From: Rhodopila globiformis
Lineage (GTDB): Bacteria > Pseudomonadota > Alphaproteobacteria > Acetobacterales > Acetobacteraceae
Assembly (NCBI RefSeq): GCF_002937115.1
Contig: NZ_NHRY01000266.1
Span: 1 to 64,000, forward strand
Reading direction: 5' to 3'
Length of the DNA: 64,000 nt
The notes below the pieces were generated by a model, which had not been told where the DNA came from, did no database searches, and was given only the letters and a program-made list of their open reading frames with translations. Shown piece by piece: positions 1,508 to 63,843 of the stretch (its first letter is position 1; every line of letters starts with the position of its first letter). The position numbers and the translations under genes are program-made.

Positions 1508-2155
1508 CTAAAGACGGTATAAGCGTTTGAACCATGAGACGAATGCCGCCGCAGCCGGCGCCTTTGGATCGAGCGTTTTGCGTGTCAGGGCACGTCCCAA
1601 ACTTTCCCCCGGCGGATCTTGCCAGGCCAGCCAGGTGTGGACCCGGGCCTTATCCGAGTGGACAACACGGCAGGCGGCCCCGAGCGACCGCGCGGCGTCG
1701 AACGACGTCCTGGCATGTTGCCACAGCGGTTCAGCCGGTACCGGAACGAGGTGTCGCAGAAAGCTTTCAAGCATTCCCGACGAGGAACAGTCAGGCATCA
1801 GCCAGAAGCCCAACCGAATGCCCCCTGCATTTTCAATGATCAGGCCACCAGGTGGCAGTTCAGCGGGGAACGTGGGAAACATCGGCCGGCAAATCGCGCG
1901 AAAACTTTCCCATCTGGATGCTGGGGCGTCGTCCGCATCGAGCATGATGCCGAGAATCTGAAGGCTGCTTTCCTTCAGTTTTGTTCGTAGGTAGGTGGCA
2001 GACAGGATCTCGGTTACGCTGCCGACCGCATCGACGAAGACGGGCGCATCATCCCGTTTGTCAGGCCAGGGAATGTAATGTTCCATAAGTCCAACGACAG
2101 CGAATTTGTCATCCTGGCCTTCGACGAGCAACTGCTTCGATTTTACGGACGACAT
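1508..2155 (-). CDS. DUF3226 (TOPRIM-like) protein, partner of the adjacent ATPase
   Basis: A 215-residue protein matching the DUF3226 pattern. It opens with LLVEGQDD (residues 9-16), whose Glu12 fits the catalytic Glu of TOPRIM folds, and MLDADDAP (71-78) fits the metal-binding DxD motif. The family hallmark [16 protein letters not shown] spans residues 118-133. The ATG lies 2 bases after the stop of the ATPase gene, so translation is coupled; the TAG stop abuts the pgk Shine-Dalgarno. Codon and base use are less GC-rich than in pgk and gap. TOPRIM partners of AAA/ABC-type ATPases in known systems (PARIS AriB, RloB/AbiLii, OLD) are nucleases or effectors; an effector role here is inference. 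A housekeeping DNA or RNA role cannot be excluded. Confidence 0.78.
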
Positions 2156-8976: not shown

Positions 8977-9555
8977 TCAGGCGGCCTCGTCCGCCTCCGG
9001 CGGTGGCGGTACCGGCACAGTCCGGCCTTCCCGTTCCAGACGCTCGTTCGCCAGGGCGACCGCGGCATTCAGGTCGGTCTGGCTGCACAGTCCCAGAATG
9101 ACCGGATCACGCGGCTTGATGTTGGCGCTGTTCCAGTGCGTCCGCTCCCGCACCTTCTGGATGGTGTCCTTGGTCGTGCCGAGCAGCTTGCCGACCTGCG
9201 CTTCCGAAAGCTGAGGGAAATTGCGCAGCAGGAATGCGATTGCGTCCGGCCGGTCGTTGCGCTTGGCCACCGGGGTATAGCGGGCGCCGCGCAGCCGCTT
9301 GGGCGTCGGCAAGGTTCCGATCAGCAGCTTCAGGCGCGCGTTCGGATCGGCTTCACACCGGCGTATGTCCTCCAGCGTGACCTGGGCGTTGGCGACCGGG
9401 TCGTAGCCAACAATGCCCTGCGCCACCTCGCCATCGGCGATGGCCTGCACTTCCAGTGGATGCATGCCGCAGAAATCCGCGATCTGCGTGAAGGTCAGGG
9501 CGGTTTTCTCAATCAGCCACACGGCGGTGGCCTTCGGCATCAGCGGCAGGGTCAT
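8977..9555 (-). CDS. trcR: TrcR-type cell-cycle transcriptional regulator (DUF1013)
   Basis: A 192-residue alphaproteobacterial protein. It starts MTLPLMPKATAVWLIEKTAL, the strongly conserved N-terminus of DUF1013, so the ATG at 9555 is preferred over upstream in-frame codons. GMHPLEVQAIADGEVAQG (about 29-46) and LSEAQVGKLLGTTKDTIQKV (about 126-145) look like helix-turn-helix segments. The family was described as a cell-cycle transcription regulator in Alphaproteobacteria. A proline-rich acidic tail (PPPPEADEAA) ends the protein. It is divergent from the DUF1192 gene. Confidence 0.88.
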   Translation of the reverse strand: MTLPLMPKATAVWLIEKTALTFTQIADFCGMHPLEVQAIADGEVAQGIVGYDPVANAQVTLEDIRRCEADPNARLKLLIGTLPTPKRLRGARYTPVAKRNDRPDAIAFLLRNFPQLSEAQVGKLLGTTKDTIQKVRERTHWNSANIKPRDPVILGLCSQTDLNAAVALANERLEREGRTVPVPPPPEADEAA

Positions 9556-9770
9556 GGTTCCACACTCTCTGGGTCGCCGGCGGACGTTCATTAACTCTGA
9601 GGATGTCTTTGGTGGGACGACCAGCACAAAAGACAGTTCATAACCGCGGCTAGCATTCGGATATGACAATCCGGCCGGGGTGGGTCAAGCAACTTTGGTA
9701 CTATTAATTTACATAAAGCGAACCAGCCCAAGGCGATGGCTCCGCCCGGCAAGACGATGGAGAAACTGCA

Positions 9771-10041: not shown

Positions 10042-10512
10042 TTATGCCGCCTTGGCGGCATCCCGCGAGTCGTTGGCGATGGCTGCCGGCGCGGCGTTGC
10101 CGATTGCGATCTTCCGCGGCTTCAGCGCCTCGGGCACGACACGCTTCAGGCCAACATGAAGCAGCCCGTGTTCCATGTCCGCGCCCTCCACGACGATGTG
10201 ATCCGCGAGCACGAAGCGCCGCTCAAACGCCCGTCCAGCGATCCCGCGATACAGGACTTCGGACTTCTGGGCCTCCGGCGACATGCGGCCGGACACGACC
10301 AACGTGTTCTCCTTGACCGTCAGGTCAAGCTCTTCGGGGCGGAAACCGGCAACCGCCATGGTCAGGCGGTACGTGTCATCACCGGTCTTTTCGATGTTGT
10401 ACGGGGGATAGCTCTGCGCATCCTGCCCGGCAGCGGCAGTATCGACCAGACGGGCAAGCCGATCAAAGCCGATGGCCGTACGGAATAGCGGAGCGAAATC
10501 GACGGTTGTCAT
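10042..10512 (-). CDS. Small heat shock protein, Hsp20/IbpA family
   Basis: A 156-residue ATP-independent holdase chaperone. The alpha-crystallin domain spans about residues 35-130: YPPYNIEKTGDDTYRLTMAV, VKENTLVVSGR, LYRGIAGRAFERRFVL, then the C-terminal anchoring sequence KPRKIAI (IxI motif). The N-terminus MTTVDFAPLFRTAIGFDRL is the usual IbpA start. AGGAGG lies 6 bases before the ATG at 10512. The upstream leader can fold as a ROSE thermosensor, which would make translation heat-inducible. Confidence 0.95.
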   Translation of the reverse strand: MTTVDFAPLFRTAIGFDRLARLVDTAAAGQDAQSYPPYNIEKTGDDTYRLTMAVAGFRPEELDLTVKENTLVVSGRMSPEAQKSEVLYRGIAGRAFERRFVLADHIVVEGADMEHGLLHVGLKRVVPEALKPRKIAIGNAAPAAIANDSRDAAKAA

Positions 10513-10575
10513 AACAAACCTCCTGCTAAGCAAGGTCTTGATCCTGGGCTTCCCGGCACGGGCAAGCCCTTCGGC
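10513..10575 (-). promoter_or_regulatory. Probable ROSE-type RNA thermometer in the hsp20 leader
   Basis: On the minus strand the last leader hairpin (10518-10536) reads ACCUUGCUUAGCAGGAGGU. It holds the ROSE hallmark UUGCU facing the Shine-Dalgarno AGGAGG. Pairing leaves one G opposite a G; removing that G would give a perfect stem, as described for ROSE elements. A second stable hairpin (arms GGGCTT/AAGCCC, 10546-10569) lies just upstream. Inference from motif and position only. Confidence 0.6.
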
Positions 10576-10828
10576 GTTCAGTCCCGGGAACCCCATTGGG
10601 CATTCCCGACGCGACCGAGATAGGAAGGCATAACAGGCCCTTCAAGAGGGCCATGGCAGTAGGTCCGAGGAAATCGCTGACGAAACCAGTGGCGCAGGAC
10701 CGGCGGCGCGTTGGCTCTGTCGGCATGGCGGATGCAAGGGCTTGTTCCGACCGCATGCACGGATCCCGGAGACAATCCGCCGCGGCCGTAGCGCCCACCA
10801 TCATGGCTCGAACAAACCGCGCAGGCGC

Positions 10829-11076
10829 TACAGCAGACCACAGGTCGATTGAGACAGGGCGACGGCGCTCCCTCATTGTCATGGCCCGGCTTGTCCGCAT
10901 AGGCGCTAACTTAGGCGGCCAGGGGCACGGCCGTTGCTACCCCGTCATGGTGGGCTCAGGCCCACCATCCACGCCTTTTGCCGATATCAGCACCGTAAGG
11001 CGTGGATGACGGCCCTGCGGCCGCCATGACGACGGGGCGGTGCATCGCGCCCGGCCGCCTAAGTTTGCGCCTATGC
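10829..11076. repeat. Nested palindromic repeat between hsp20 and rpmE
   Basis: Arms at 10897-10920 and 11053-11076 form a 24-bp inverted repeat with one mismatch (GCATAGGCGCTAACTTAGGC type). Inside is a second palindrome with arms around GGTGGGCTCAGGCCCACC and GGATGACGGCCCTGCGGCCG. A single arm of another repeat (TACAGCAGACCACAGGTCGA) precedes it at 10829. The 632 bases between hsp20 and rpmE contain no credible gene. Confidence 0.8.
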
Positions 11077-11228
11077 GCAAGCCAGGTCACGACGATAGGA
11101 AAATGAGCCCAGGCGGATCGGCCTGCCCACCTGATGCCGCTTGACCTCACGTGTATGTGAGGTCCTCAGGTGGCACGGCGAGGAGGAGCTTCCGTTTGAA
11201 CGGGATGCACCGGGTCCCCACCAGACCG

Positions 11229-11453
11229 CTACTTCTTGATTCCAAGCCCCGCGAACTTCTTGTTGAACTTGGCCACCTGTCCGCCGGTGTCCAGGATGCG
11301 CTGCACGCCGGTCCAGGCCGGGTGGGACTTCGGGTCGATGTCCAGGCGCAGCGTGTCGCCGGCCTTGCCCATGCAGGAACGCGTCTTGAACTGCGTCCCG
11401 TCGGTCATGATGACGGTGATTTCGTGGTACTCTGGGTGGATGCCCGGCTTCAT
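11229..11453 (-). CDS. rpmE: 50S ribosomal protein bL31
   Basis: A 74-residue ribosomal protein starting [19 protein letters not shown] with the family core [13 protein letters not shown]. It has only one cysteine (SCMGKAGD), so it is the zinc-free type lacking the CxxC pair. The ATG at 11453 is chosen because the upstream extension is not family-like; AAGGA lies 8 bases before it. It is divergent from hpnN. Confidence 0.97.
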
Positions 11454-11632
11454 TCCATATGTCCTTGCAGGCGCGACCGATACCGACCGGCCACGCGAAC
11501 GGCGGCCTATAGCGGTCGCGGACACAGAGCTCAAGTCTTGGTTGATCAGCTTTGTGATGGACCACCCGGAGCGAACCGACTATCAGGGCCGCCCCATCGT
11601 CATACGCCCCACCATCGTAGGCATTCTCATTG

Positions 11633-63747: not shown

Positions 63748-63843
63748 TGGCGGAAGAGAGCAGGAGTCGAACCTGCCCGGGACCGCTCGGCAGCCCCAAC
63801 CGGGTTTGAAGTCCGGCCGACCCACCGGGGTCGCGTCTCCTCC
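63748..63843 (-). tRNA. selC: tRNA-Sec (anticodon TCA)
   Basis: A 96-base selenocysteine tRNA. The acceptor stem has 8 bp (GGAGGAGA with TCTCTTCC, one G-U), with discriminator G and an encoded CCA (63748-63750). The anticodon TCA is at 63807-63809 in GGACTTCAAACCC. A long variable arm (GGGGCTGCCGAGCGGTCCC) and T arm GCAGGTTCGACTCCTGC are visible. It lies 18 bases after the selA stop on the same strand and reads UGA as selenocysteine. Confidence 0.96.

What the first reader, a model, noticed from the sequence alone, without database searches (positions are those of the whole stretch)
10513..10575. Probable ROSE RNA thermometer upstream of hsp20
The leader holds UUGCU opposite AGGAGG with one unpaired G facing G, plus an upstream stable hairpin, directly before the hsp20 ATG. 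These are the defining ROSE features in alphaproteobacterial small heat shock genes.
Basis: partly seen in the sequence, partly recalled or inferred. Interest (0 to 1): 0.5.

Follow-up and report, generated by a model that had tools for sequence, protein, structure and literature searches.

The report
ROSE-type RNA thermometer before hsp20
The stretch just before a small heat-shock gene in this genome is a conserved three-hairpin messenger leader of the known ROSE type, which most likely hides the ribosome-binding site in the cold and frees it in the heat; it is a well-supported new member of a known kind, not a new kind.

Summary
On the minus strand, UUGCU (10529-10533) faces AGGAGG (10519-10524), 6 nt before the ATG (10512) of an HSP20 gene. 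The element is longer than reported: about 10513-10610, three hairpins, behind a heat-shock (RpoH) type promoter CTTGAA-N16-CCTATCT (10646-10618).

Thirty leaders (window, 28 congeners, one sister genus) share this anatomy: 98.5% of cells pair, and 12 of 26 pairs carry two-sided changes (50 such cells against 17.1 +/- 2.7 in shuffles, 0 of 500). UYGCU-N1-10-GGAG occurs in 96 of 104 hsp20 leaders and 0 of 406 control upstreams. A model of the leader matches 64 of 120 genomes of the family; all 5 matches checked lie before HSP20.

Rfam's cut-off is not reached (ROSE_3, 17.3 of 43 bits), although RF00435 passes in 4 of 4 plasmid hsp20 leaders, and two HSP20 leaders match both RF00435 (sub-threshold) and our model. 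Melting predictions were uninformative. Temperature response is untested. Another hsp20 of the same genome has a conserved two-hairpin ROSE-like leader.

The parts
10641..10646 (-). -35 element CTTGAA of an RpoH-type promoter
   Evidence: CTTG with 15-17 nt to a -10-like heptamer in 30 of 30 leaders (best-scoring placement chosen by script, some heptamers poor), exact CTTGAA in 23 of 30
10618..10624 (-). -10 element CCTATCT, 16 nt after the -35
   Evidence: fits the RpoH consensus quoted in PMC4843759
10585..10608 (-). hairpin I: 7 bp, one unpaired G, 3 bp CCC/GGG
   Evidence: 100% of cells paired, 6 of 10 pairs with changes on both sides
10546..10569 (-). hairpin II: 6 bp, one unpaired G, 3 bp CCC/GGG
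   Evidence: 97.4% of cells paired, 6 of 9 pairs with changes on both sides
10518..10536 (-). hairpin III, the putative thermosensing ROSE hairpin: ACCUUGCU-UAGC-AGGAGGU
   Evidence: 97.6% of cells paired, no two-sided changes (sequence nearly invariant)
10529..10533 (-). anti-Shine-Dalgarno motif UUGCU
10519..10524 (-). Shine-Dalgarno AGGAGG
10045..10512 (-). hsp20 coding sequence without stop codon (156 aa)

Best explanation
A ROSE-type RNA thermometer in the 5' leader of hsp20. Chain: RNA polymerase with a heat-shock sigma factor (RpoH) starts near 10611; the about 99-nt leader folds into two stable hairpins and a weak third one in which UUGCU covers AGGAGG with one G left unpaired or facing a G; at growth temperature the ribosome cannot bind; on heating the third hairpin opens and Hsp20 is translated. 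Shown here: the sequence parts, their conservation, base-pair covariation in hairpins I and II, the promoter match. Inferred: transcription start, SD masking in the cell, melting on heating, temperature-insensitivity of hairpins I and II.
For: HSP20 gene; three-hairpin structure 98.5% paired in 30 distinct leaders, 12 pairs with two-sided changes, sliding the partners by 1-3 columns drops pairing to 35-68%; RNAalifold on the same alignment finds the same three hairpins, with 12 pairs changed on both sides; U[UC]GCU-N1-10-GGAG in 29 of 30 and 73 of 80 hsp20 leaders (6 of the 80 duplicate the first set) against 0 of 406 controls; model R2 matches the leader in 41 of 74 further loci at E <= 0.01 and 61 of 74 at E <= 1, and 64 of 120 genomes of the family, once each, 5 of 5 checked lying before HSP20; RpoH-type promoter; L121 and L122, both HSP20 leaders, match RF00435 and R2 at the same place.
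Against: Rfam ROSE families stay below cut-off at the window: RF02523 17.3 of 43 bits, RF00435 no match. R2 finds none of the four Rfam-positive plasmid leaders (only an opposite-strand 11.8-bit match in L145), nor L120 and L123. Whole-leader folding energy is ordinary (z -0.59). One of five covariation measures, further pair types, is reached by 27 of 500 shuffles. ViennaRNA predicts only a small rise in SD accessibility for the window (0.24 at 30 C, 0.28 at 42 C), a fall in some leaders (L016, L020, L024), and masking hardly better than in shuffled leaders (mean 0.29 against 0.32 at 30 C). Hairpin III shows no covariation. No expression data.
Confidence: 0.9

Rival explanations
1. The hairpins are a conserved leader that stabilises the mRNA or binds a protein or small RNA, and temperature control is only transcriptional through RpoH.
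For: RpoH-type promoter present; melting predictions do not show a clear temperature effect; hairpins I and II carry the covariation, not the SD hairpin.
Against: The UYGCU motif just before the SD is kept in 96 of 104 leaders while the loop between varies; this is the ROSE signature named in PMC3669281 and PMC9450479 (passages).
Confidence: 0.07
2. The stretch is coding: Hsp20 starts at an in-frame ATG at 10596, and the 'leader' is an N-terminal extension.
For: The window frame is open from ATG 10596 (184-aa ORF).
Against: In 13 of 30 leaders an in-frame stop lies within 66 nt before the ATG, and only 8 of 30 have any in-frame upstream ATG before a stop, at differing positions; the changes are compensatory in base pairs.
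Confidence: 0.01
3. Chance resemblance of a Shine-Dalgarno region to the ROSE motif.
For: The short motif occurs 3 times in the genome, fewer than the 9 of the control pattern; single-sequence folding is not unusual.
Against: Conservation and covariation in 30 leaders; 0 of 406 control upstreams.
Confidence: 0.01

Closest known systems
ROSE element RF00435 (type: Bradyrhizobium hspA)
   Same: Upstream of a small heat-shock gene; three hairpins in the model; first hairpin with an unpaired G followed by CC/GG (consensus shown); UUGCU opposite the SD in the last hairpin.
   Different: Below Rfam cut-off; last hairpin is ACCUUGCU/AGGAGGU rather than CCAUGUUGCU/GGAGGAUAUGG; hairpin II also has the unpaired-G design; the AUG lies outside the last hairpin, inside it in the model.
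ROSE_3, RF02523
   Same: Hairpin I (GGAAUGCCC..GGGGUUCC) aligns to its first hairpin, AUGCC..GGGU with an unpaired G.
   Different: Only 17.3 of 43 bits; the last hairpin does not align well; three hairpins here, two in the model.
Short ROSE-like leaders of Pseudomonas ibpA (PMC3669281, passages read)
   Same: U(U/C)GCU masks the SD; first hairpin that does not melt there; gene depends on sigma-32.
   Different: Two hairpins, 61-62 nt, gammaproteobacteria; those are tested by experiment, this one is not.
Rfam-predicted ROSE element of Gluconobacter oxydans 621H hsp20 (PMC5756330, passages read)
   Same: An hsp20 leader in an acetic acid bacterium.
   Different: Predicted under RF00435; no start site detected there; no thermometer test in the passages read.

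Membership tests
ROSE-like RNA thermometers | 5' leader of a small heat-shock (HSP20) gene | tested here: met
   PF00011, E 4e-16; ATG 6 nt after the SD
ROSE-like RNA thermometers | U(U/C)GCU opposite the Shine-Dalgarno in the 3' hairpin | tested here: met
   10529-10533 / 10519-10524; motif in 29 of 30 leaders, window included, and 73 of 80 further loci
ROSE-like RNA thermometers | conserved G in the anti-SD strand, bulged or facing a G of the SD | tested here: met
   alignment columns 94 and 105 both G in 30 of 30; the feature is taken from PMC9450479 (passages). Which register forms is not settled
ROSE-like RNA thermometers | two to four hairpins | tested here: met
   three hairpins, covariation in I and II
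ROSE-like RNA thermometers | temperature-dependent translation | not testable with these tools
   ViennaRNA scan uninformative
ROSE-like RNA thermometers | leader transcribed from a heat-shock promoter upstream of the hairpins (usual, not defining) | tested here: inconclusive
   CTTGAA-N16-CCTATCT ends 7 nt before the first base of the modelled leader; start site and sigma factor not measured
Rfam models RF00435 and RF02523 | score at or above the curated gathering score | tested here: not met
   RF02523 17.3 of 43 bits; RF00435 no match at the window or in its genome; controls over cut-off in 4 of 4 fetched leaders

The most novel reading that the evidence does not exclude
Acetobacteraceae carry a distinct branch of ROSE, below Rfam's thresholds, in which two upstream hairpins share one design (6-7 bp, unpaired G, CCC/GGG, small loop). 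The design is also seen in the first hairpins of RF00435 and RF02523 and in the leader of another hsp20 of the genome. That unpaired-G hairpin would be a second functional signature of ROSE, for instance a docking or folding element that tunes the melting of the last hairpin.
Probability: 0.3. Interest if true: 0.45.

Novelty: new member of a known kind. Interest (0 to 1): 0.25.

Why it matters
It extends a known class of temperature sensor to a branch that the public RNA family models score below cut-off, with 30 aligned leaders and a working model for annotation. The function of the upstream hairpins of ROSE is 'not fully understood' (PMC3669281, passage), and the conserved unpaired-G design gives a concrete thing to mutate.

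Tried and rejected
Rejected: N-terminal extension of Hsp20; chance motif. Uninformative: single-sequence folding and the ViennaRNA temperature scan with 450 shuffled leaders. Search of the genome with RF02523 at E <= 10 gave two weak matches elsewhere, none over cut-off (150 of 2365 candidates scored), and rang as weakly in all 14 control genomes. The Rfam E-value search of 20 loci gave one ROSE match, ROSE_3 at the leader of L023 (21.7 bits); L001, the window's own locus, gave none in that larger search. RF00435 and RF02523 over 142 genomes of the class gave 3 and 1 genomes at E <= 0.001, none over cut-off, under stricter filters. In ten further loci one ROSE match, L104 at 35.7 of 45 bits. 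A first model R1 with another register of hairpin III was built and not used for searches.

Literature: full-text searches for ROSE + RNA thermometer + Acetobacter (3 papers), + Rhodospirillales (0), and RNA thermometer + acetic acid bacteria + heat shock (1) gave only the Gluconobacter prediction as relevant by listing and passages. Chowdhury 2006 and Nocker 2001 are not held; Waldminghaus 2005, cited for more than 40 ROSE candidates, was not looked up. Acetobacteraceae ROSE may already be in print there.

Full report
What is there. The minus strand from 10646 to 10045 reads: CTTGAA, 16 nt, CCTATCT, a leader of about 99 nt (counted from the inferred start), ATG, and a 156-aa HSP20 protein (PF00011, E 4e-16). 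Upstream on the same strand lies an L31 ribosomal protein gene (11232-11534). The nearest named records are Rhodopila and Acidisphaera, and six of them carry leaders identical to leaders of the unnamed congeners, so I take the genome to be an Acetobacteraceae; its own record is not named.

Anatomy of the leader. Hairpin I spans 10585-10608, hairpin II 10546-10569, hairpin III 10518-10536. I and II share one design: 6-7 bp, one unpaired G, then CCC/GGG. Hairpin III holds UUGCU opposite AGGAGG.

Comparison. The protein finds matches in 49 of 59 genomes. The 30 best loci (window, 28 congeners, one sister genus) were aligned; in all 30 the leader aligns from end to end, with L017 and L023 divergent in hairpin III. 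On the 30 distinct rows the three-hairpin structure has 98.5% of cells paired. Twelve of 26 pairs have changes on both sides, 6 in hairpin I and 6 in hairpin II; one pair of hairpin I is C-G in 15 rows and G-C in 15. Cells with two-sided changes number 50 against 17.1 +/- 2.7 in shuffles (0 of 500 reach it). The number of further pair types is less striking: 25 against 22.2, reached by 27 of 500. Sliding partners by 1 to 3 columns drops pairing to 35-68%. Hairpin III has no covariation because it hardly varies. Shuffles do not remove relatedness, so the slides and two-sided changes weigh more. MAFFT aligned without the structure, but the structure was written from the window; RNAalifold on its own finds the same three hairpins, with hairpin III as GACCUU/GGAGGUU.

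Wider spread. Of 80 further hsp20 loci (6 repeat leaders of the first set), 73 have U[UC]GCU-N1-10-GGAG in the last 60 nt. The misses are L053, L078, L089, L092, L106, L111 and L115; L053, L078, L106 and L111 show UUGCU or UCGCU before a variant SD, L092 and L115 lack the motif, and for L089 my script moved the start 27 nt upstream. Controls: 0 of 406 upstream stretches of mechanical ATG ORFs of at least 200 aa, many of which need not be true starts. Model R2 matches the leader in 41 of 74 loci (L044-L117) at E <= 0.01 and 61 of 74 at E <= 1, where two off-leader matches also appear; it finds none of the four other own HSP20 loci given. It matches 64 of 120 genomes of the family, window and G010 included, 56 without a match under stricter filters. 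For 5 of these 64 I checked the gene: all 5 lie just before an HSP20 domain. In its own genome only the window copy is significant (2.5e-13; next 0.52; 150 of 5740 candidates scored).

Rfam. The window gives ROSE_3 at 17.3 bits (cut-off 43), E 0.44 for the 501-base search, aligned chiefly over hairpin I, and nothing at gathering. The failure seems to lie in the models' reach: none of 20 hsp20 loci chosen from the 80 passes (most labelled alphaproteobacteria, L048 labelled Solirubrobacterales). Yet RF00435 passes with 45.3-64.8 bits in the four plasmid hsp20 leaders that I fetched, from Rhizobium (two), Gluconobacter and Skermanella, out of 566 plasmid records with a match. L121 and L122 match RF00435 (38.5 and 37.4 bits) and R2 (34.6 and 24.5 bits) at the same place; L104 matches both weakly (35.7 and 16.7 bits). 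L120, L121 and L122 each lie before an HSP20 gene. Against this, R2 does not find the four plasmid leaders, L120 or L123.

Promoter. CTTGAA-N16-CCTATCT fits the RpoH consensuses that PMC4843759 quotes from Barnett et al., CTTGAA-N15-16-CCTATAT and CTTGCC-N15-16-CCTATCT (passage read). All 30 leaders have CTTG plus a -10-like heptamer at 15-17 nt when the best placement is taken, some heptamers poor; 23 have CTTGAA. It was not measured.

Mechanism and limits. ROSE elements mask the SD with U(U/C)GCU through imperfect pairing and open gradually up to about 42 C (PMC3669281, PMC9450479; passages read). Three registers are possible for hairpin III here; ViennaRNA prefers one that bulges two SD Gs. 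The temperature scan does not separate real leaders from shuffled ones, so thermosensing rests on family resemblance, not on computation.

Another element. One further hsp20 of the genome (contig C114, L033; one of five HSP20 places) has a shorter leader. I fetched 20 relatives' copies and aligned 19 of them, all congeners, with L033; L143, of another family, was left out. They fold as one hairpin of the same unpaired-G design (GCC..GGG) plus an SD hairpin in which UCGCU, invariant in 20 of 20, has its G unpaired. Five of 17 pairs show two-sided changes, all in the first hairpin. R2 reaches one of the two such leaders tried, L130, at E 0.0055; L033 itself at 2.1.

Verdict. A ROSE-type thermometer by the sequence features that could be tested, outside current Rfam thresholds. 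New member of a known kind; modest interest.

Noticed in passing
L033 (own genome, contig C114), leader 1900-1965 minus strand: Another hsp20 with a two-hairpin ROSE-like leader (UCGCU before GGAGG, GCC..GGG hairpin with unpaired G), conserved in 19 congeners.
   Followed up: partly
10895-11090: Palindromic dispersed repeat between hsp20 and the L31 gene (31-nt end arms 90% complementary, inner 35-nt inverted repeat 83%); 89 matching pieces in the genome with only 40 of 451 candidates scored. Looks like a MITE or REP-type element.
   Followed up: partly
63752-63843: Selenocysteine tRNA, minus strand, Rfam 72.9 bits.
   Followed up: no
8977-9669: TrcR cell-cycle regulator homologue on the minus strand (PF06242), about 370 bases downstream of hsp20.
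   Followed up: no
window hairpins I and II (10585-10608, 10546-10569); L033 leader: These and the first hairpins of the RF00435 and RF02523 consensus share a stem with one unpaired G followed by CC/GG; its role is not known to me.
   Followed up: partly
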